From: Aequorivita antarctica
GTDB lineage: Bacteria; Bacteroidota; Bacteroidia; Flavobacteriales; Flavobacteriaceae
NCBI RefSeq assembly: GCF_007997155.1
Contig: NZ_VORT01000007.1
Coordinates: forward strand, 1 to 64,000
Reading direction: 5' to 3'
Length of the DNA stretch: 64,000 nt
Under the pieces are notes generated by a model, which searched no databases, was not told the origin of the DNA, and saw nothing but the letters and a program-made list of their open reading frames with translations. Below are positions 50,846 through 61,088 of this stretch, in pieces (within the stretch, counting starts at the first letter, position 1; every line of letters starts with the position of its first letter). A program made the position numbers and the translations under genes.

Positions 50846-51595
50846 TTATGTGACAATTAAATACTTTGTTAGATTAGCTAGTTCACCATCCCAATCGCGA
50901 GAGATATTTTCTCTTAGCAATTTTGCAGGTATTCCTCCAATTAAGACGTTTTCACCAAATTTGGAATAATCTTTATTACATAAGGTATTTGAAGCAATGG
51001 AACAATTATCTGGAGTTACCGTTTTTTGCATAATAGACACTCTATTGCTAATAAAATTATAGTCCCCAAGTTTAATGCTACCATTTATTGGGTATTTCTC
51101 ACCCGTTTTAGTATTCACCATTTGATGGAAATTGGTGTCAATCAGTTGCGATTCAGAGCCAATTCTTGCATAAGTGCCTAAAACAATTTTGTTTTTACAT
51201 ATTACTTTTCCGTTGGAAGCTAAGGAAGCCATATGTCCAAATTCACAATATGCATTGTCATATACATACACAAAATAATCTTTCCCAAACTGAACGTGCC
51301 CCTTAACTACAAAAGTTCCACTCAAAAATAGTTCAGAGGTGCCTTTATATTTAGTAATTAGCTCATAAGGCTGTCCAAATCCTACCATAGCTCTCTTTAT
51401 GGGAGCTTCAATTTTGAAATCACCTTTTAAAGATGAAAATTTTACTGGTCCATAAAAAAATACGGGAAGTTTTCTGGCTACTGCTTTAGGAAACATCTTA
51501 TAATTGAAATAGTATGTTTTAATCCAATTCACAGATTTATAAAACCTGAATTTCTCACGGAGACTTCTATATATTTTCTTTAAGAATTCTATCAT
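50846..51595 (-). CDS. Left-handed beta-helix acyltransferase
   Basis: A 249-residue cytosolic enzyme with hexapeptide-repeat pattern in its C-terminal half: VICKNKIVLGTYARIGSESQ, GDYNFISNRVSIM and NVLIGGIPAKLLREN. Such enzymes transfer acetyl or other acyl groups from CoA to sugars; the trimer-forming loop and the active-site histidine are probably near DTNFHQMV. The start overlaps the flippase stop by four bases (ATGA), placing it in the minus-strand glycan operon. It could O-acetylate the repeat unit or N-acetylate the amino sugar. Confidence 0.85.
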   Translation of the reverse strand: MIEFLKKIYRSLREKFRFYKSVNWIKTYYFNYKMFPKAVARKLPVFFYGPVKFSSLKGDFKIEAPIKRAMVGFGQPYELITKYKGTSELFLSGTFVVKGHVQFGKDYFVYVYDNAYCEFGHMASLASNGKVICKNKIVLGTYARIGSESQLIDTNFHQMVNTKTGEKYPINGSIKLGDYNFISNRVSIMQKTVTPDNCSIASNTLCNKDYSKFGENVLIGGIPAKLLRENISRDWDGELANLTKYLIVT

Positions 51596-53076
51596 TTCTT
51601 TCGTCTAAAAAATTTTCCGAACACTTCTTTTATATCCATTTTCTTATCTAATTGAATATATGAAAATACAAAAGAAAACAGTGCTACTAATGATAGTGCG
51701 ATATATTTTAAATAAGTGTTCTCGAGATAAGTAAGCAAGAAAGATACACCACATAATAATATACAGATAGCGAAAACGGAATAAAAACCTTTTTCAAAAT
51801 AGAAGCCATAACGATATTTTGTTATAATGCGAATTCCTGCGAAATGTATAATGTAATAAAGGAGGAAACTAATACCCAAACCTTCTAACCCTCCATAGTA
51901 ATAGCCTACCACATTCCCCACTAAAAGTAAGGCATTAAAGCCAATTGCAGTTTTAATAAAAGTTTTTGAATCTCCTTTTGCGATAATAATATAACCCATA
52001 GAAAAAGAAACAGCTTTAAAAACCATGCCTAAAATGCCCCAGTTTACCATACTAATTATAGGAGTGAATTCTTTGGAATACAGAATCACTATTATTAATG
52101 GAGCTGCAAGTAAAAACACCACCACAATTGGGGTAATTAGCAAAATGGCAATGAATGCTTGTTCAAAAACAGTTTTGCGTATTTGTTGAATTTTATCGGA
52201 AATCGCAGATAATCTTGGAAAATAATCAGTTCCCATGGCATTAAAAACAAGGCCCACATATGAATTTAATATCACAAAACCTGCATTATAAAATCCCACC
52301 TGAGTTACTCCTCCTGTTTGGCTTATAAAAATTTGAATTAAATAGGCTACCAATAACCCTATCATGGTACTTAGACTAAGCATGATTCCCAAGTAAATCA
52401 TTGGCTTACCTTCAGAGAAAGCCTCTTTATTTGAAAGCCCTATTTTTTCAATTTCAATCGTTTTTGCATAATAAAATGTAAAAATAAAGGCTACAAAAGA
52501 TGATATTATTATAGCAGGCACAATTGCATCTACTCGGTAGAAGTAGTAAAGAGGAAGTGTTATGACCAACCCAAAAAGATTTCCGTATAAATTTGCCTGT
52601 GCTAATTTTTTTAATTTCCGAAGACCTTGAAGAATGGCCAATTGGCCATTTGAAAGTTGCTTGAACAAAAGAGCAACAGAAAGCCACACAAAGGAAAAGG
52701 TAAATTCTTTGCTTTCAAAAGCAAATTCGCTCAACCAAGGGGAAGCTATCATCATAACCAAAGCCCCAAAACAAGCTGAAACCCACACGAGCCTTTTTAA
52801 AATTTGAATCGTTCGTGAAACGCTTTTTGTGTTTTCGCTGTTATAGTTATAGGAGATATCCTTTACAGCGCTTTTGTCAAGTCCAAAATCGGTCATTCCA
52901 CTTATAAGGCCCAAGGTTGAAGTGAAAAGTGATGCAATTCCGTATCCCGCTGGGCCAATCCAAAGAGCAATAAATTTTGAACGAACTATAGAAACAAGAA
53001 TATTGAAAACCTGAACACCACCAAAAAGTGATGTGGCCTTCATTACCTGTCTATATGAATTTTTAGATTCTAGCAT
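51592..53076 (-). CDS. Polysaccharide flippase (Wzx-like, MATE/MVF fold), copy A
   Basis: A 494-residue integral membrane protein with about 12-14 helices. The N-terminus shows ATSLFGGVQVFNILVSIVRSKF and IGPAGYGIASLFTST, typical for oligosaccharide flippases. It moves a lipid-linked sugar unit to the outer leaflet of the inner membrane. The N-terminal serine/arginine pattern differs from the neighbouring flippase, so the two are separate subfamilies rather than a recent duplicate. It is coupled to the acyltransferase downstream. Confidence 0.88.
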   Translation of the reverse strand: MLESKNSYRQVMKATSLFGGVQVFNILVSIVRSKFIALWIGPAGYGIASLFTSTLGLISGMTDFGLDKSAVKDISYNYNSENTKSVSRTIQILKRLVWVSACFGALVMMIASPWLSEFAFESKEFTFSFVWLSVALLFKQLSNGQLAILQGLRKLKKLAQANLYGNLFGLVITLPLYYFYRVDAIVPAIIISSFVAFIFTFYYAKTIEIEKIGLSNKEAFSEGKPMIYLGIMLSLSTMIGLLVAYLIQIFISQTGGVTQVGFYNAGFVILNSYVGLVFNAMGTDYFPRLSAISDKIQQIRKTVFEQAFIAILLITPIVVVFLLAAPLIIVILYSKEFTPIISMVNWGILGMVFKAVSFSMGYIIIAKGDSKTFIKTAIGFNALLLVGNVVGYYYGGLEGLGISFLLYYIIHFAGIRIITKYRYGFYFEKGFYSVFAICILLCGVSFLLTYLENTYLKYIALSLVALFSFVFSYIQLDKKMDIKEVFGKFFRRKK

Positions 53077-53124: not shown

Positions 53125-54411
53125 TTAAGATATCCTATTCTGCTTTTTAAAATATCTAAACACTAAGAAAGAAACTATAAAAAAGTAAACCACGTATCTT
53201 AAAAAGTGTGCCATTACCACGCCCTCAATGCCGTATATTCCCGTGAAATAATATGCAAACCCATAAAAAAGTGCCAGCGACATTATCTCTGTAAATATAA
53301 AATTGAACACCAATCTTTTGGCTAAAAACTGATGAACTAGAACTAAGGAAGCTAAGCGTATAAAGTCTCCCAAAAGTTGCCATTTAAAGAGCGGAGCCAT
53401 TTCAATTTGCCCAGGATATATTAGTTCTATAATCACATTTCTAAATAAAAACACTAAAATCATCCCCCCAGCAAAAAGTGGCAAAAGTGTTTTATAGATA
53501 GCTATTACTTCATTTTTAAAATTTTCTGAATTATAAATTCCGGCAAATTTGGGGATTACATAAAGCGTAAAAATGGAACTTGAAAACACCATATAATTCT
53601 GTGAGATAAACGTCATATTGGTCCAAATTCCCGCATCTCTTCCAGATAGTTTTTCGTCTAGCATACTGCGAATATCTATCTCCACAATGGGCAATAAAAT
53701 TGAGGAAACAAAAGACATAACGGTAAAAGCCAAAAGTGCCTTTGCCATAGGTGCTTGAAGTTTGAGGCTTTTAAATTGAATATACTCGCGCAGTACTTTA
53801 TAAAAAAAGAAAAGCATAACTGAAACCTGGACAACGGGCGTAATAGCAATTGCAAACAAAACGCCATCCAAATTATACTGAAATAAAAATATTACTGTTA
53901 GCACCGCGCTAACCAAATAGCTAATCAAGTCTATTTTAGCGTATTTTTTATAATCTGAAAGACCATTTATAACACCATTAAAAACTCGTTGAACGGCTAT
54001 AAAAGGAACTATAACTGCCGTAAATTTTATTAAATAGGAATATTCGGTAGACGAAAATAAGTAAGAACTAATTTCTGAAGAAAACAAAAGTAGAACGGAA
54101 GATGTAATAGAAACCCCAATAATCTGAAATACAAAAACAGAGGAAAACAGTCGCTGCAGCTTTATTTCATCTTCTTTATATTCGGCAATGTATTTTACTA
54201 TTCCATTAAATGTTCCTAAGGAAGTAATAGACATTAAAAGTGAAGATAAGCTTCTAAATTGCCCTATTTTATATTGCCCTACTGGCCCGACATATTCAGA
54301 CAACAACCGCTGTATTAAAGCAGAAATAATCAGGCGAAAGCCAATAACTCCAGCATTTAAAGAAGTCATCTTTAAAAGAAGATTGCCGCGTATAAAATCT
54401 GGGATTCTCAA
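53125..54411 (-). CDS. Polysaccharide flippase (O-antigen translocase-like), copy B
   Basis: A 428-residue membrane protein with about 12 helices. It opens with LLLKMTSLNAGVIGFRLI, the pattern of the O-antigen translocase subfamily. The start is a TTG directly after the stop of the aminotransferase gene; the next ATG (54369) is 14 codons in and also possible. It belongs to the same operon as the aminotransferase. Having two flippases in one locus suggests two glycans, or a remodelled locus. Confidence 0.85.
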   Translation of the reverse strand: MRIPDFIRGNLLLKMTSLNAGVIGFRLIISALIQRLLSEYVGPVGQYKIGQFRSLSSLLMSITSLGTFNGIVKYIAEYKEDEIKLQRLFSSVFVFQIIGVSITSSVLLLFSSEISSYLFSSTEYSYLIKFTAVIVPFIAVQRVFNGVINGLSDYKKYAKIDLISYLVSAVLTVIFLFQYNLDGVLFAIAITPVVQVSVMLFFFYKVLREYIQFKSLKLQAPMAKALLAFTVMSFVSSILLPIVEIDIRSMLDEKLSGRDAGIWTNMTFISQNYMVFSSSIFTLYVIPKFAGIYNSENFKNEVIAIYKTLLPLFAGGMILVFLFRNVIIELIYPGQIEMAPLFKWQLLGDFIRLASLVLVHQFLAKRLVFNFIFTEIMSLALFYGFAYYFTGIYGIEGVVMAHFLRYVVYFFIVSFLVFRYFKKQNRIS

Positions 54412-55512
54412 TTAATATTTATTTAAAACCGAAATCACTTTTTCAACATCTTCATCCGTCATGATCGGACTCATGGGAATGCTCAAAACCTCGCGATGTA
54501 TTCTTTCAGTATTTGGAAAATGTAAATGGGAATATTCCGAAAGTGCCTGCTGTTTGTGGGGCGGAATTGGGTAATGAATTAAATGGCCAACTCCATTTCT
54601 ATCCAAATAATCAATGAAGCCGTTTCTATTCTCTACACAAATTACAAAAAGATGAAACACGTGGTTTTCACTACCGTCGTAATCTGGAAGTAATACTTTT
54701 TCATTTTTGATTTCAAAAATATACTTTTTGGCAATGACTCTTCGACGCTCGTTATCAGCATCCAGTGTTGGCAATTTTATGTTTAGAAATGCAGCTTGTA
54801 ACTCGTCGAGTCTTGAATTGAAACCCAAAAGCTCGTTGACGTATTTAGTAGAAGCTCCATAATTTCTCAATTTTTGAATTACTTCAGCCAACTCGTCGTC
54901 ATTGGTGGTCACAGCTCCCCCATCTCCCAAAGCTCCTAAATTTTTGGTAGGATAAAAACTAAAACCTGCCGCATTGCCAATATTTCCTGCGCGTCTTCCA
55001 TCTTTTGCTTTTGCTCCATGGGCCTGTGCCGCGTCTTCAATAACCAACAGATTATTTTCTTTTGAAATCTTTAAAATTCCCTCCATAGGTGAAAGTTGTC
55101 CGTAAAGATGTACGGGCATTATGGCCTTGGTTTTTTCGGAAATAGAACTTTTAAGTGAGTCAAGGTTAAAGTTATAAGTGCTCAAATCAGCTTCTACCAA
55201 AACAGGGATTAAACCCGCTTGCTTTATTGCTAAAATCGTTGCGATGTAAGTATTTGAAGCCACCAAAACCTCGTCATTCTCTTTTAGCTTTCCGAGGATT
55301 TTATAGCCTTCTATAATCAATCGTAGTGCATCCAAACCGTTGCCAACACCTATGCAGTGCTTTGCCCCGCAAAACCCCGCAAAATTAGCTTCAAACAATT
55401 TCACTTGAGTTCCCAGAATATAATAACCAGAATCCAAAAAATGTTGGAAACTGCTTTGAAGTTCAGCTTCAAAACGTTGGTTGATTGTTTTTAAATCCAA
55501 GAATGGAATCAT
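54412..55512 (-). CDS. DegT/DnrJ/EryC1/StrS sugar aminotransferase
   Basis: A 366-residue PLP-dependent enzyme. The PLP-binding lysine is K190 in [17 protein letters not shown]. Other family residues are GNGLDALRL and [11 protein letters not shown]. It transfers an amino group to a keto sugar nucleotide. The nearest named relatives are FdtB/QdtB, which use the product of the FdtA-like isomerase also present in this locus. It overlaps the upstream GNAT gene by four bases and abuts the flippase gene. Confidence 0.9.
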
Positions 55513-56486
55513 ATAAATACGGATTCTAATTTTTTATAATTTGCTGTTTTCACTTCATAAAATGATTGTGAAATACTTCTGGCTCCAAAACATTCTTTCC
55601 AATAAAGCAATCCTTCGTTTATGTTTCTTCCATTATTTTCGTTTGAAGTCCCAAAATCAAAATATCTCTTTTCCTTGAAACGCTGATTTATTAAATATTC
55701 AAACAAAAAATCTAATGTTCCCAACTGTTGTTTGTCTTCATTGGCTGAAATATATTGCATATGGGCCACATTTTCGGTTTCAAAAATTGTTGCCCCACCA
55801 ACTATTTCATTTTCTTTATAAACATTAAATTGCAATATGTTTTTTGGAAAATAATTTGCCAACTGAGTGATTTCAACAGCCGAATGAACAGGCATCGCTG
55901 CGTGGCGCAAAGCCAAATTTGGAATTAAAATAGTATTCCAAAATGGCTCAAAATCATTTCCTTCCACTACTTTTAAGTTATTTTTCTGGCCTTTTTTAAC
56001 TCCTTCCAAGCGGTTTGATGCAATTTTCAATGGACGCTGTTTGTCTATTACACTTAAAACATCAACTCTTATCATTGCGGCTCTAACTATAAAAAGCAGA
56101 TAATCCATTTCATCCGAGGGTAACAGATTGTAAATGCTTGGTATTACTTTTAACTGAAGTTTTTTAATTTTATTTTCGTCCAACCACTGAAGTAGATTTT
56201 TAAAAATCTCAACAACTTCCTTCAATTTTGCTTTTTCGTTAAGTAGCAAGCCGCCGTAAGTTAAGCCTTGATGGGTGTATAAGGTTTTTCTAGAAATATT
56301 GGCTGGTAAGATCCCAACCACTTTTTCATTTTTAAAAATTAGTAAAGAATGGTCCTCAAATCTATCAGAATGATATTCCATAAAATCCCGATGAAAAAGA
56401 AACGTAGCATTTTTTGTGTTCAGCAAAAAAGACTGCCAAAGTGCTCTATCTTTCGAAGTATACTTTTTTACGGAATAGTTTGCCAA
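55509..56486 (-). CDS. GNAT/FemAB-like acyltransferase
   Basis: A 325-residue cytosolic enzyme with two GNAT-like halves ([20 protein letters not shown] in the first; [41 protein letters not shown], quoted in parts, in the second). The start is TTG at 56486: an in-frame stop lies 10 codons upstream and no earlier ATG exists. The four-base overlap with the aminotransferase suggests it acylates the amino group that enzyme installs. FemAB-type aminoacyl transfer is the alternative. Confidence 0.82.
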
Positions 56487-56542: not shown

Positions 56543-58033
56543 TTAGATTTTTTTACAATCAACATCTCCTTTTTCGTCTATATATTCATAGACTCCCTCG
56601 ACCGCGTCTTCTTTTAAAATTAAATAGCTTTTATCTTCTTGAAGGTGTTTCAAATATTCTTTGTCGTTCCCCAAATAAGAAAATAAAACCCGGAAAACAT
56701 TTATACAACTCTTTAAATTTGAATCTATAGACGGCACTTCATTGTTTGGCCAACGAATAGAAAACATTACGCTAAAAGCACTATAAACAATATTGCGGTC
56801 AGTAGTTTTTTTGTAAAGTTCATGGGTATAATCCAAGCCCACAAAACCTCCGTGATCTGCCATAATCATAATTAACGCATTTGGATCATTTTCAACAATA
56901 AGGCTTACCATTTTTCTTATTTTTCCGTTGGCAATTTCCCTTTTTTTAAGCCACAGTTCCCGTTCTTTTTCTTTTCCTTTCGAGGCAGCTTTTGTACTTG
57001 ATATGTGGCTCGGTTCAAAAATTTCTATAAAAAAGAAATTTCCAACATCGCTCTTGGAAGCGATAGCTTTTTCCAAATCGGGATACACATCTTTAACAAC
57101 ATTAAAACCTGTAGTGATATACGGAATTTCACTGTATTTGAAGTTGGTAAAATCATATCCCACTTTTGGTCGATTTACCAATAAATATGGATGCTCGGTA
57201 ATAAAATGTGTTTTATAACCATTGTTTTTGAAAATGGTCAACACTGGATTTTCAGAAATTATGTTTTTTCGTGCGTTAATCATTTCCTTATAATCCGTTT
57301 TTCTATTGTAATAGTGGTGCTTCATCATAAATGTTGCACTGTTGGAAGTTAAGGTCGAAATATAATTGCTTCGAAAATTGGGGTAATTTTTAAAATCGTT
57401 TTCTTCCAAAAATGTCTTAAAGCCCGAATCGTCCACATTGTAAAATCCGCTTTCCAGTTGAGAAAAATTTACATAGCCATCTGGTTGAATGTAATAAATA
57501 TTCGGTTTTTTTTGGAATATAACGCTTTCAATACTATCTGGTTGCTGCATCCATTTGGAGGAATAATTTAAATATTTTATAACTATAGGCACCAAGCCAA
57601 TAAACCCAATGACCGCCAAAAGCAGTTGAATGGCGAGCCATTTTTTAAAATACTTATACAGAAAATAAGCTATCAAAACTGAAATAATAAAGATTCCCAA
57701 TATTATTTTCCTTTGAATATCGGTGTATAAAATGATTTTTATAAAAAAGAAAAAAAGAAAAATATTAAAAAATGGAATTATATATTTTCCCCATTTTCCA
57801 GTAAAAGAAAGACTGGAAAACCATTTTAAAGTTGAAAAGAAAACAATCGGAATAAGTAAAAAAAACAATAAAAAGTAACCCAATTGTTCCAAAGAATTAA
57901 TCATCCCAAAATTGCGGGAATAATAAAAAACCAAAGGATACAAGCCAGTTGCAATACCTATAAAAATAGGATTTGCCGAAACTTTGTTTAAAAATCCTTT
58001 AGAACTTTTTTTTGTAGTTTTAGACCGTCTCAT
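56543..58033 (-). CDS. Membrane-anchored alkaline-phosphatase-superfamily enzyme, copy A
   Basis: A 496-residue protein. About five membrane helices fill residues 22-153. A periplasmic sulfatase-like domain follows, with the first metal aspartate in YIQPDGY (D185), a serine/threonine-rich nucleophile region (TLTSNSAT, 227-234) and the second metal site IMADHGG (D393, H394). There is no C-x-P-S-R motif, so it is not a formylglycine sulfatase. It resembles phosphoglycerol or phosphoethanolamine transferases such as LtaS and EptA. It overlaps its paralogue upstream by four bases. Confidence 0.87.
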   Translation of the reverse strand: MRRSKTTKKSSKGFLNKVSANPIFIGIATGLYPLVFYYSRNFGMINSLEQLGYFLLFFLLIPIVFFSTLKWFSSLSFTGKWGKYIIPFFNIFLFFFFIKIILYTDIQRKIILGIFIISVLIAYFLYKYFKKWLAIQLLLAVIGFIGLVPIVIKYLNYSSKWMQQPDSIESVIFQKKPNIYYIQPDGYVNFSQLESGFYNVDDSGFKTFLEENDFKNYPNFRSNYISTLTSNSATFMMKHHYYNRKTDYKEMINARKNIISENPVLTIFKNNGYKTHFITEHPYLLVNRPKVGYDFTNFKYSEIPYITTGFNVVKDVYPDLEKAIASKSDVGNFFFIEIFEPSHISSTKAASKGKEKERELWLKKREIANGKIRKMVSLIVENDPNALIMIMADHGGFVGLDYTHELYKKTTDRNIVYSAFSVMFSIRWPNNEVPSIDSNLKSCINVFRVLFSYLGNDKEYLKHLQEDKSYLILKEDAVEGVYEYIDEKGDVDCKKI

Positions 58034-59517
58034 TTCTTAATAAAAACCACCTTCCCCTCATTGTCCAAATATTTATAGATTCCCTGTGGTACACCGAAGT
58101 TGATGATTATATAACTTTCATCAGGTTGTAAGTTATCAATATACGAAGGTTTATCACTTAAATAAGCAGTGAGTATTCGAAAAAGGTTCACCGATGTTTT
58201 TAATTTATTGTCAAATTCAGGAACCTCCCCATTTGGCCAATGAATAGCGAGAATAGTACTGAAAATAGAGTTTACAAAATCAGGATCTGTATTTTTTGTG
58301 TAGGTTTCAGATGTGTTGGTCATCCCTACAAAACCACCGTGGTCGGCCATTATTATTATTAAAGCTTCCGGGTCGTTCTCAAGAATGTTTTTTGTCAATA
58401 GTCTCAACTTTTTATTGGACTCCTGTAAGCTTTCAATATAGTGTTTGCGCTCCCCTTCCACACCTTTTGAATCGTCTATTGTATTGGTTATATGCCCAGG
58501 GTTGAAAATTTCAACAAAAAAGAAATTTGGCCCTTCGGAATAGGTTTCCATATAATTTTTAAAAGGCTCAATAACATCTCGAGGATCCCCAAGACCAGTC
58601 GTGACAAAACTGATTTCTTTTGTTGAAAAATTACAGAAATCATAGCCCAACTTCGGTTTGTTAGTTAAAAAATAAGGCTGCTCCGTGAGAAAAAATGTGC
58701 GATACCCGTTGTTTTTAAGAATGCGAAGCACACTGTTGTCTGAAACAATAACATTACGTGCATCAATGGTTTCGGTAAAATCTGAGCCATTGTTGTAATA
58801 GTGGTGCTTCATCATAAAGACCGCACTGTTAGTGGGCAAGGTTGCCGCATAATTACTTCGGAAGTTTGGATAGCTCTTAAAATTACTTTCCTTCAAATAG
58901 GTTTCGAAATCAGCATTATCAATATTATAATGCCCTTTTTTCAGTTCAGAAAAATTCGCATAACCATCTGGCTGGATGTAATAGATATTTGGTTTCTTTT
59001 TGAAAACCGCAGCTTCAATATTATCAGGCTGCGTCATCCATTCTTTTGAATAGTTCAGTTGCTTAATAACCACAGGCGTTAAAGTGAACACACCTATCAC
59101 GGCAAGTATCAACTGAAAGCCAATTATTTTTATGAAAAACTTACGAAGCAACAAGGCAAGCAGTACTGCTACACCAAATATGATTAAAGTCCGTATCCAG
59201 CTAAAACCAGCATATAATGCCACATTAAGGTAAGAAAAGAAGAAGAAAAAGTTTAAAAAAGGCAGTGCAATCGGTTGCAGTTTTTTAAAAAAATTAATTT
59301 TTGAAACCTTATTGACAATGAAAAAAAGTACTATCGGAGTCAAAATAAATATTGATACAAAATATCCCAAGTGACCCCAGGAATTTATCATTTTGTAGTT
59401 ATTTGTATAATAAAATAAAAGCGGATATAATCCCGCCGAAACCCCAGCAATCATTGGGAATATATTGTCTCTTCTAAAAAAAACCGAGAAGAATCCCTGT
59501 CTTTTTTTAGGCTCCAT
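58030..59517 (-). CDS. Membrane-anchored alkaline-phosphatase-superfamily enzyme, copy B
   Basis: A 495-residue paralogue of the preceding enzyme with the same layout: about five membrane helices, metal aspartate in YIQPDGY, a nucleophile region TLPTNSAV and the metal motif IMADHGGF. The two copies are similar but clearly diverged across the whole length. Tandem retention suggests different acceptors or sequential steps. It overlaps the methyltransferase gene upstream by 11 bases, indicating one translationally coupled unit. Confidence 0.87.
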   Translation of the reverse strand: MEPKKRQGFFSVFFRRDNIFPMIAGVSAGLYPLLFYYTNNYKMINSWGHLGYFVSIFILTPIVLFFIVNKVSKINFFKKLQPIALPFLNFFFFFSYLNVALYAGFSWIRTLIIFGVAVLLALLLRKFFIKIIGFQLILAVIGVFTLTPVVIKQLNYSKEWMTQPDNIEAAVFKKKPNIYYIQPDGYANFSELKKGHYNIDNADFETYLKESNFKSYPNFRSNYAATLPTNSAVFMMKHHYYNNGSDFTETIDARNVIVSDNSVLRILKNNGYRTFFLTEQPYFLTNKPKLGYDFCNFSTKEISFVTTGLGDPRDVIEPFKNYMETYSEGPNFFFVEIFNPGHITNTIDDSKGVEGERKHYIESLQESNKKLRLLTKNILENDPEALIIIMADHGGFVGMTNTSETYTKNTDPDFVNSIFSTILAIHWPNGEVPEFDNKLKTSVNLFRILTAYLSDKPSYIDNLQPDESYIIINFGVPQGIYKYLDNEGKVVFIKK

Positions 59518-60901
59518 AATTTTTATTTTTTAATAGATACAGTAAACGTTTGGTCCCTTTTACCGTTTCCTTTTTTTCTAGGGTAAAGTATTGTAGATAA
59601 CCTTTCTCAAATTCCGTTTCGTTGTAAAAATCAAAATGGTTTATAAATTCTCGCTTGCGAACCAGTAATGACTGTGCCCAAGAATCCTCCCGGGTCGGGA
59701 ACTCGATGATAAGGTTTTTTGAAAAAGAAGCGAAAAAAGAAGCCGATTTTTCAAAAGGAACATTTCCGGAAAGTGTAATGTGGTGAATTAATGCCAAAGC
59801 CATCGTTACATCTGGCGCATATTCTGCCAAACGTTCCATTAGGGAATTGCGCTCTGTATTATTGAAACCAATGCCGGGAGCTGGTTGTAAAACATCGCAC
59901 ACAAAGGGCAGCATATTTGTTTCCTTATTTTTCTGAAGTTGTTTGTAATTAAAATCTACAGCATTGCTGTCAATATCGGTAACAATTATATGTGGAACGT
60001 TATCAATAACGGACCGGGCAAAAGTGCCATCGTTGCCGCCCACATCAATTAATTTTTGTGGTGACAATGGTTTTATCCACTCTTTAATCAACGTTTTTTT
60101 TGCCTCAAAAGCGGCTTCGTCATAATTGGTTTTGTCGTAATAATCACCCCATTCACTTGTTTCTTTCAGTGTTAAGCCTTTTATATAATCGTAAAGACTT
60201 TCCAATATATTCTCCTGTGATTTTTTGGAAAGGGCCGTGATTTTGGTTTCAGCTTTGTAGTCTTCCCTGTGCTTGCTTTCCATTTTTGCAAGCAAGTGAA
60301 TGTTTGGATACACCACCGAACTAATCTTGGTTCGTGAAGGGAGTAAGGAGGAAATCAATTTCACAGGAATCCCGTCAATGTGCGTTTGCATCATTTTGAA
60401 AATTTCGGTGCCGTGATATTTTGCCAAAACCAAAGGTCCAAAAAAGTGTGTGATGAATTGTTTATATGCACGCCAAGGAGTACCTTCTTCATAAAAGTCG
60501 AAAGAAAGTGTGTCTATAAAAACAGGTTTCCCTTTGTGAAAAGTAACGTTATAAGCGGAAGCATCTTTCAAAATAAAACCTTTTGAAAGTGCGTATTTCT
60601 GAATTTTTAGAGTGTGGAGCGCGGCGTGTTTGTATTGCTCAAAGCTCCATTCGTAAGGATTTGTGATGAATGGAATTTCTTCCGGAGTGATAATTATTTC
60701 TTCCGAAGAAACCGAAGTCTCTTCATGTGGAATAAGCAAACCATTCGAAATTAGGCTTTTAAAAAAACCTGTTTCTTTCAGTTTTTTGTATTGCGCGAAA
60801 TATATAGGATTGATAGCCCTACGAAGTGTTTTTCCATCATAAAACATGTATCCAGAAGGATCACGAAATGAAGCTTGGTGTGCGTCAGTTTTTTTTGTCA
60901 T
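59507..60901 (-). CDS. Kinase-like domain fused to a class I methyltransferase
   Basis: About 464 residues from the ATG at 60901; an ATG at 60931 would lengthen the overlap with the upstream gene to 47 bases. The N-terminal half carries a kinase-type catalytic pattern: LKDASAYNV with D113 and N118 five residues apart, and FID with D130, at the spacing of protein and aminoglycoside kinases. No glycine-rich loop or clear ATP lysine is visible. The C-terminal half is a methyltransferase: motif I LIDVGGNDGTFA (284-295), then VTDID and the LALIHHI strand. It resembles NoeA-type methyltransferases by memory. The fusion and the neighbouring phosphotransferases suggest linked phosphorylation and methylation of a glycan end. 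Confidence 0.82.
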   Translation of the reverse strand: MTKKTDAHQASFRDPSGYMFYDGKTLRRAINPIYFAQYKKLKETGFFKSLISNGLLIPHEETSVSSEEIIITPEEIPFITNPYEWSFEQYKHAALHTLKIQKYALSKGFILKDASAYNVTFHKGKPVFIDTLSFDFYEEGTPWRAYKQFITHFFGPLVLAKYHGTEIFKMMQTHIDGIPVKLISSLLPSRTKISSVVYPNIHLLAKMESKHREDYKAETKITALSKKSQENILESLYDYIKGLTLKETSEWGDYYDKTNYDEAAFEAKKTLIKEWIKPLSPQKLIDVGGNDGTFARSVIDNVPHIIVTDIDSNAVDFNYKQLQKNKETNMLPFVCDVLQPAPGIGFNNTERNSLMERLAEYAPDVTMALALIHHITLSGNVPFEKSASFFASFSKNLIIEFPTREDSWAQSLLVRKREFINHFDFYNETEFEKGYLQYFTLEKKETVKGTKRLLYLLKNKNYGA

Positions 60902-61088
60902 CTTTATTGGTGTCTTCCTCTTCAACGTCAATTGAATCGTAAGTATCTTCTTTCTCTTTTACCATTCCGAAAAAAGATTTCACCTTATACATAACACCTT
61001 TTGAGAAAAGCAATATTCCAGCTGCCGCTGCCACTACCGCTTGTACTAACATTGCTCCCAGCCCTGGATCGAAATAAAGAAAATTCAT
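60885..61088 (-). CDS. Small 'FDPGLG' membrane protein
   Basis: A 67-residue protein. The conserved N-terminal motif YFDPGLGAMLVQ leads straight into one membrane helix (AVVAAAAGILLFSKGVMY), then a basic segment and a very acidic tail (DSIDVEEEDTNKDDKK). Short proteins with a DPGxG...Q motif and one helix occur next to glycan-modification genes in several phyla, but I know of no assigned function. It overlaps the kinase-methyltransferase fusion by 17 bases (start at 60901) and starts the four-gene module. Confidence 0.78.
   Translation of the reverse strand: MNFLYFDPGLGAMLVQAVVAAAAGILLFSKGVMYKVKSFFGMVKEKEDTYDSIDVEEEDTNKDDKKN

What the first reader, a model, noticed from the sequence alone, without database searches (positions are those of the whole stretch)
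56543..61088. Four-gene module: small DPGLG membrane protein, kinase-like/methyltransferase fusion, two tandem membrane phosphotransferases
Seen: four overlapping genes (overlaps of 17, 11 and 4 bases) encode a 67-residue membrane protein with motif FDPGLG, a two-domain protein with kinase-type D...N...D residues and a methyltransferase, and two paralogous alkaline-phosphatase-superfamily enzymes on membrane anchors. Known: phospho-methyl caps end O-antigen chains in some bacteria, made by kinase-methyltransferase proteins such as WbdD; LtaS/EptA-type enzymes transfer phospho-groups from lipids outside the membrane. Inference: the module caps or decorates a surface glycan with phosphate, methyl and phospholipid-derived groups, with the small protein as a membrane dock. 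I know of no description of this combination.
Basis: partly seen in the sequence, partly recalled or inferred. Interest (0 to 1): 0.75.

Follow-up and report, generated by a model that had tools for sequence, protein, structure and literature searches.

The report
NoeAB-type cell-surface modification operon
A group of neighbouring genes in a marine flavobacterium resembles, in gene order and protein families, a poorly understood operon that root-nodule bacteria use for infecting particular plants; it probably adds phosphate-containing groups to molecules of the cell surface and comes with a tiny membrane protein for which I found no study.

Summary
In detail: four overlapping minus-strand genes at 56543-61088 (overlaps 17, 11, 4 bases). 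The system is not unknown. The fusion protein is a near-full-length relative of Sinorhizobium meliloti NoeA (29% over 95%), and S. meliloti pSymA has the same order: an unnamed DPGTGS small protein, noeA, then noeB, a sulfatase-fold gene. A 2022 survey (PMC9758233) already described this family as a kinase-methyltransferase next to an alkaline-phosphatase-fold protein. WbdD is only an analogue: its methyltransferase lies N-terminal, here C-terminal. What seems to add to print is the small protein. It was found with the fusion in 80 of 80 named loci and in 13 of 14 fusion-positive genomes of the phylum sample; the 381 others gave seven weak matches, judged chance. Its invariant Y-x-D...G...Q motif should face outward, with a basic inner end. 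Both phosphatase-like proteins keep nucleophile and metal residues; the one modelled has five N-terminal helices. In Flavobacteriaceae the module mostly sits in a glycan-export cluster. Likely function: phosphorylation/methylation inside and phospho-group transfer outside, on an envelope glycan or its lipid carrier; the chemistry is inferred. The kinase assignment rests on motif, topology and the published analysis; my profile test was not significant.

The parts
60885..61088 (-). 67-aa single-pass membrane protein with a Y-F-D-P-G-L-G motif that should face outward; near-obligate partner of the fusion protein
59507..60901 (-). NoeA-type fusion: N-terminal kinase-like domain (R28, D113, N118, D130) and C-terminal class I SAM methyltransferase (about residues 250-464)
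   Evidence: published analysis of the family in PMC9758233
58030..59517 (-). Phosphatase-like protein 1: five N-terminal helices, read as membrane helices, and an alkaline-phosphatase-superfamily domain; D184, T226, H342, D392, H393
56543..58033 (-). Phosphatase-like protein 2, paralogue (48% identity) with the same active-site residues; groups with copies of two other Aequorivita loci, apart from protein 1
55509..56486 (-). Co-directional neighbour; FemAB/GNAT-like by my own reading, no Pfam match; relative present in 50 of 80 named loci
54412..55512 (-). DegT/DnrJ/EryC1/StrS aminotransferase
53125..54411 (-). Wzx-type polysaccharide exporter (Pfam Polysacc_synt)
51592..53076 (-). Second Wzx-type polysaccharide exporter (Pfam Polysacc_synt_3)

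Best explanation
This is a flavobacterial NoeA/NoeB-type module that modifies an envelope glycan or its lipid-linked precursor. Proposed working: the cytoplasmic NoeA-type protein phosphorylates an acceptor (kinase-like half) and methylates it, or the new phosphate (methyltransferase half). The small protein spans the membrane once, basic end inside and YxDPGxG motif outside, and couples the cytoplasmic enzyme and its lipid-linked product to the outside. The two membrane phosphatase-like enzymes, acting outside through a threonine nucleophile, transfer a phospho-group onto or off that glycan. The glycan then leaves through the Wzx-type exporters encoded next to it. Shown here by computation: gene content, co-occurrence, predicted folds, active-site residues, topology by charge, genomic context. 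Inferred: kinase activity, acceptor, methyl target, donor, physical coupling.
For: NoeA homology over 95% of the query and the order small protein-noeA-noeB on S. meliloti pSymA. Small protein with the fusion in 80 of 80 named loci, 79 directly upstream and 1 (L096) with a phosphatase-like gene between. In 395 genomes of the phylum, 13 of 14 fusion-positive genomes (own one included) have it, 12 directly upstream and one (G308) with a phosphatase-like gene between (Fisher P 1.9e-23 with 13/1/0/381, weak matches counted as absent). Fusion, small protein and phosphatase-like protein are missing together in G002 and G014. A phosphatase-like gene in 73 of 80 named loci, and elsewhere in the genome in 6 of the other 7. 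Model with five N-terminal helices plus a domain matching PbgA, EptC, EptA, MCR-1 and LtaS; catalytic T or S in 37 of 37, D392 37 of 37, H393 36 of 37, D184 36 of 37, H342 34 of 37. More basic residues on the inner than on the outer flank of the helix in 23 of 23. Glycan neighbours: Wzx 42, DegT 40, FemAB-like 50 of 80 named loci.
Against: Profile comparison of the kinase-like half with aminoglycoside phosphotransferases was not significant (0.5% probability; four control pairs 0.2-0.8%), though D, N and D fell in register. No fold hit to a kinase is among the 50 shown of 1992: they are methyltransferase-type hits, WbdD included with about one domain. Outside Flavobacteriaceae a Pfam count of 88 of 119 listed neighbours was not dominated by glycan genes (M42 peptidase 5, Sulfatase 4, LuxE 4, glycosyltransferases 2 and 2). 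S. meliloti NoeB is not matched by the profile of the window's phosphatase-like family, only by Pfam Sulfatase. A net-charge measure of the small protein's tail was positive in only 39 of 79, because the far tail is acidic. No substrate is known to me for any member.
Confidence: 0.5

Rival explanations
1. The kinase-like half is a non-kinase: a pseudokinase that only binds nucleotide or a glycan chain end and regulates the methyltransferase, or a nucleotide transferase. The module would then methylate inside and transfer phospho-groups outside.
For: Arginine, not lysine, in the place of the usual kinase lysine, and no ion-pair glutamate found by the published analysis (R28 here); my profile test gave no significant kinase match.
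Against: Catalytic-loop residues D113, N118 and D130 invariant in 40 of 40 relatives and present in S. meliloti NoeA (read by eye); order of helix, catalytic loop and hairpin as in kinases (compared from memory).
Confidence: 0.2
2. The phosphatase-like proteins are not transferases but sensors or regulators like PbgA/YejM, or phosphatases that remove a group.
For: PbgA/YejM gives the top solved-structure matches.
Against: Nucleophile and metal-site residues are kept in nearly all of 37 sequences; two to four copies in 22 of 80 loci suggest different acceptors or donors.
Confidence: 0.15
3. The proteins are secreted effectors acting in a host, as the Legionella survey considered for its homologues.
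For: Effector prediction for the Legionella homologue and its neighbours in PMC9758233.
Against: The phosphatase-like protein has five N-terminal helices read as membrane helices and the small protein looks like a single-pass membrane protein; the same paper says most carriers appear non-pathogenic and also allows for an action on the bacterial envelope.
Confidence: 0.03
4. The module acts on lipids or on the small protein itself, not on a glycan; the glycan neighbours are incidental to Flavobacteriaceae.
For: Mixed neighbours outside Flavobacteriaceae; in 14 genomes scanned for it, one small protein each except one genome with two.
Against: Glycan cluster shared by many Flavobacteriaceae; divergent homologue L052 directly after an ABC-exporter ATPase among glycosyltransferases (read by eye); nodL-noeA-noeB operon.
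Confidence: 0.2

Closest known systems
NoeA/NoeB of Sinorhizobium meliloti (nodL-noeA-noeB operon, host-range nodulation genes)
   Same: NoeA homology (29% over 95% of the query), same gene order with an unnamed DPGTGS small protein upstream of noeA and a sulfatase-fold protein downstream.
   Different: Different phylum and setting (Wzx/DegT glycan cluster here, nodL and cytochrome oxidase genes there); two phosphatase-like copies; NoeB is not matched by the profile of the window's family.
Lani_1194 family (Legionella kinase-methyltransferase with neighbours Lani_1193 and Lani_1195, PMC9758233)
   Same: Same kinase-like plus methyltransferase architecture, arginine in place of the kinase lysine, phosphatase-fold neighbour; the paper names Flavobacteriales and rhizobia among the carriers.
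   Different: The paper's main text does not describe the nature of Lani_1193 (homologues in 65% of 816 neighbourhoods); it may be the small protein, which I could not check.
WbdD (E. coli O9a kinase-methyltransferase that ends O-antigen chains)
   Same: Both kinds of domain in one protein beside glycan genes; WbdD entries are at ranks 4, 7, 17, 24 and 36 of the 50 fold hits shown.
   Different: Methyltransferase N-terminal in WbdD (profile match at chain residues 67-177 or 54-164) and C-terminal here; sequence similarity not significant (E 0.49-0.79); WbdD's coiled coil not seen here.
LtaS / EptA / EptC / PbgA membrane enzymes
   Same: N-terminal helices and an outer alkaline-phosphatase-superfamily domain with Thr nucleophile (roles of the residues recalled).
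   Different: 11-17% identity in the fold search; an aspartate (D184) at one metal position where LtaS and EptA have glutamate (recalled); donor and acceptor unknown.

Membership tests
NoeA (Lani_1194-type kinase-methyltransferase) | Homology to S. meliloti NoeA over both domains | tested here: met
   About 29% over query residues 10-452, E about 1e-42
NoeA (Lani_1194-type kinase-methyltransferase) | R, D, N, D kinase-like residues | tested here: met
   R28, D113, N118, D130 invariant in 40 of 40 and 14 of 14; seen by eye in S. meliloti NoeA, where the neighbouring K112 is serine
NoeA (Lani_1194-type kinase-methyltransferase) | C-terminal class I SAM methyltransferase | tested here: met
   Methyltransf_12 and _23 match 28 and 27 of 40 members at E up to 1, best 4.4e-7; the window protein itself 0.0037, below the curated cut-off; fold hits
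NoeA (Lani_1194-type kinase-methyltransferase) | Kinase fold by profile comparison | tested here: inconclusive
   Comparison with APH not significant
NoeA (Lani_1194-type kinase-methyltransferase) | Kinase and methyltransferase activity | not testable with these tools
   needs biochemistry
NoeB-type partner | Sulfatase-fold gene directly downstream of noeA | tested here: met
   P0003 Pfam Sulfatase 3.1e-7; P0004 1.9e-5, just under the cut-off; NoeB 2e-10
NoeB-type partner | Direct sequence match between NoeB and the window's copies | tested here: not met
   NoeB not tagged by the profile of the window's family at E 1e-3; same Pfam family only
WbdD | Methyltransferase N-terminal to the kinase | tested here: not met
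   Profile positions 274-397 align with WbdD residues 67-177 (54-164 in one entry)
WbdD | Significant sequence similarity | tested here: not met
   E 0.49-0.79
LtaS/EptA-type phosphotransferases | Thr nucleophile, metal-site residues, N-terminal helices with an outer domain | tested here: met
LtaS/EptA-type phosphotransferases | Phospholipid head group as donor | not testable with these tools
   needs biochemistry
Formylglycine sulfatases | C/S-x-P-x-R maturation motif (recalled) | tested here: not met
   No such motif in P0003 or P0004

The most novel reading that the evidence does not exclude
NoeA, the small YxDPGxG protein and the NoeB-type enzyme form one transmembrane machine, kept from Chloroflexota to rhizobia. 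A phosphate (and methyl) group is put on a lipid-linked acceptor inside, the small protein's outward motif presents or binds it at the outer face, and the outer enzyme finishes the modification. On this reading the old host-range genes noeA and noeB act on an envelope glycan or lipid carrier rather than only on the Nod factor, and a third gene between nodL and noeA, unnamed in the record seen, is essential for them.
Probability: 0.25. Interest if true: 0.72.

Novelty: new member of a known kind. Interest (0 to 1): 0.45.

Why it matters
NoeA and NoeB have been known as host-range nodulation genes since 1995 (a paper cited in those I opened, not read itself), and the passages I saw report no tested biochemical function for them. 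The same fusion with the same kind of small protein is now seen in Flavobacteriaceae, Chloroflexota, rhizobia and others. That makes the unnamed small gene between nodL and noeA directly testable in a tractable laboratory symbiont and points to an envelope-located function.

Tried and rejected
WbdD membership: rejected on domain order and lack of significant sequence similarity. Sulfatase function: held unlikely, no formylglycine motif. Kinase proof by profile comparison: not significant, no better than unrelated pairs. Sequence searches of solved structures with the single proteins gave nothing useful; with profiles only weak methyltransferase, WbdD and sulfatase hits. The small protein has no match in Pfam and in NCBIfam only RutB at E 0.074, taken as chance. 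NCBIfam matches of the fusion (FlxJ family, 5.1e-4) and of protein 1 (STM4013 family, 4e-4) lie far below the curated cut-offs. Promoter and terminator scans gave 31 and 8 sites against 21.7 and 4.6 expected and were not used. Literature searches for the gene combination found no paper, or 13 papers whose listings looked unrelated and which I did not open. Of the 7 papers with noeA and noeB I opened 4. One search listed 5 papers, of which two had already been opened; one search found only PMC9758233; the 'NoeA' word search held 232 papers, the 30 listed mostly old medical texts.

In the small-protein search of the phylum sample, seven weak matches (E 4e-5 to 0.009) in fusion-negative genomes were dropped: five lie in open frames of 320-1411 aa and two run over a stop. 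This cut was made after seeing the list. The weakest accepted match (G135, 1.8e-5) lies close to it but is next to a fusion gene. Two strong accepted matches (G090, G256) also run over a stop, but their own short frames are intact. Of 119 neighbours listed, 31 were left out of the Pfam count to shorten the call, among them all of L052 and L137, which hold glycan genes by eye or annotation.
Full report
Observation. The four genes lie on the minus strand at the stated coordinates, with overlaps of 17, 11 and 4 bases. The window belongs to a genome of 3.84 Mb with one copy of the fusion gene. The closest named isolate, Aequorivita aquimaris, has a fusion protein 94% identical, so the window is taken as Aequorivita or close to it and its phylum as Bacteroidota.

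What the fusion is. In plasmid records, tblastn with the fusion protein hits 65 records, 57 of them Sinorhizobium; where a Sinorhizobium row shown lists a feature, it is nodulation protein NoeA (about 29% identity over 95% of the query; 30 rows shown). On S. meliloti pSymA CP140953 the order is nodL, a 71-aa hypothetical protein, noeA, noeB. The 71-aa protein reads as a signal-like segment ending in AHA followed by YLDPGTGSMLVQ, the window's kind of motif. NoeB matches Pfam Sulfatase (E 2e-10). A 2022 bioinformatic paper on Legionella kinases (PMC9758233; I read section 8 and searched passages) describes this family as kinase plus methyltransferase, with an arginine in place of the kinase lysine, in 1201 species besides Legionella, Flavobacteriales being among the largest groups. 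It reports homologues of the neighbours Lani_1193 and Lani_1195 in 65 and 38% of 816 neighbourhoods, Lani_1195 and NoeB being predicted to have the alkaline phosphatase fold. So the pair of enzymes is in print. PMC9048898 says NoeA and NoeB are hypothesised to modify the Nod factor (passages). PMC4053727 calls noeA a host-specific nodulation gene and reports it truncated in a strain that fails on many Medicago truncatula genotypes (passages). PMC10945364 repeats the host-range role (passages). The original 1995 paper by Ardourel and colleagues, cited in all four, was not read.

The small protein in named loci. Of these, 67 (L054-L120) are flavobacterial or look so, and 13 (L121-L133) bear other titles: Bdellovibrionales, Chloroflexota groups, Mailhella, a WWE3 bacterium, Bacillales, Zixiibacteriota, Victivallales, Crocinitomicaceae; most are metagenome bins. 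A short protein with the Y-x-D motif was found in all 80: in 79 directly upstream of the fusion, in L096 with a phosphatase-like gene between (the pattern caught 79 of 80). One locus labelled Rokubacteria (L088) looks like a misbinned flavobacterial contig.

The small protein in whole genomes. In 395 genomes of the phylum, 14 have the fusion, own genome included. Thirteen of these have the small protein: 12 directly upstream and G308 with a phosphatase-like gene between; the exception is the divergent G277. The 381 others gave only seven weak matches (E 4e-5 to 0.009), five inside long frames and two running over a stop. Counting 13, 1, 0 and 381, Fisher's test gives 1.9e-23; the genomes are related, so this is a guide only. 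In the 14 genomes behind 14 of the named loci the small protein occurs once each, twice in one.

Its anatomy. Invariant in 23 diverse sequences are Y5, D7, G11 and Q16 (window numbering). In 23 of 23 the motif side carries 0-1 basic residues and the other flank of the hydrophobic stretch 3-7. A cruder net-charge count further along the tail was positive in only 39 of 79, because the far tail is acidic. Several versions have an A-x-A signal-peptidase-like site just before the tyrosine. The motif should therefore face outward and the basic end inward; this is a prediction. There is no Pfam match and no credible NCBIfam match.

Presence and absence in the genus. The fusion is in 24 of 28 genomes. 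Of 21 of these tested, 19 have the small protein and 19 a phosphatase-like protein; the two without are G002 and G014, which also lack the fusion. The other two fusion-negative genomes, G022 and G023, were not tested. G008 keeps fusion and small protein but has its only phosphatase-like match on another contig.

The phosphatase-like proteins. A gene of this family lies in 70 of 80 named loci by profile. L123 and L131 have Pfam Sulfatase matches below the curated cut-off (8.7e-4 and 3.3e-5), and L085 has one cut by the contig end: 73 of 80. In 6 of the other 7 genomes one is found elsewhere; in G454 none. Copies per locus by profile: 1 in 48, 2 in 15, 3 in 6, 4 in 1, 0 in 10. In a tree the two window copies fall in separate groups, each with copies of other Aequorivita loci. 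The model of the first copy (pLDDT 92.8) has five helices at residues 19-154 and a mixed domain after them. The matches shown are PbgA/YejM, EptC, EptA, MCR-1, sulfatases and LtaS. Across 37 sequences the nucleophile is T in 31 and S in 6, D392 is in 37, H393 in 36, D184 in 36 and H342 in 34.

The fusion model. pLDDT is 90.5. The 50 Foldseek hits shown of 1992 are methyltransferase-type, with WbdD entries at ranks 4, 7, 17, 24 and 36, each covering about one domain (TM-score by query about 0.3). The sequence profile places the methyltransferase at residues 67-177 of WbdD but 274-397 here, so domain order differs. The kinase-like half has the order helix 87-106, loop with D113 and N118, hairpin, D130. 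Comparison with aminoglycoside phosphotransferases set D, N and D in register but was not significant and no better than four control pairs.

Context. Downstream in the window, on the same strand, follow a protein without Pfam match, a DegT aminotransferase and two Wzx-type exporters; glycosyltransferases lie further on. Relatives of these are present in 50 (FemAB-like), 40 (DegT) and 42 (Wzx) of 80 named loci, all in the flavobacterial set, and typA in 53. Outside that group I gave 88 of 119 listed neighbours, from 23 loci, to Pfam and saw no dominant glycan signal among the 25 of 118 families shown; the 31 left out include glycan genes of L052 and L137. APS kinase genes lie beside the module in L051 and L131. 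The divergent homologue in L052 follows an ABC-exporter ATPase among glycosyltransferases (read by eye).

Verdict. The finding is a real, well-kept operon of a known kind with unsolved function. The most useful point, which my searches did not find described, is the near-obligate small protein and its predicted outward motif; Lani_1193 of the 2022 paper may be the same protein. Kinase chemistry, substrate and coupling remain inference.

Noticed in passing
G000:C22:33717-35171 (same genome, outside the window): A third, unlinked phosphatase-like paralogue, 43% identical to the first window copy.
   Followed up: no
L051:59-694 and L131:327-2291: Adenylylsulfate kinase genes beside the noeA-type module in two unrelated loci, of interest because the NoeA carrier S. 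meliloti makes sulfated Nod factors.
   Followed up: partly
L052:3893-7467 (G277): Divergent NoeA homologue without a detected small protein, directly after an ABC-exporter ATPase-like gene and among glycosyltransferases, a setting like that of WbdD (read by eye).
   Followed up: partly
L088: A contig labelled Candidatus Rokubacteria carries a small protein almost identical to that of flavobacterial L085; probably misbinned.
   Followed up: no
L134:3748-3963 (S. meliloti pSymA): The 71-aa DPGTGS protein between nodL and noeA is annotated only as hypothetical; for several other Sinorhizobium records the plasmid table lists no feature under the noeA match, but that table is incomplete.
   Followed up: partly
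L054:5877-7328, L058:7655-9106: A third type of phosphatase-like gene at the Aequorivita locus; the L054 copy has serine in place of the nucleophilic threonine.
   Followed up: no
L135:5381-5611: In Deltaproteobacterium Smac51 the small protein lies directly downstream, not upstream, of the fusion gene.
   Followed up: no
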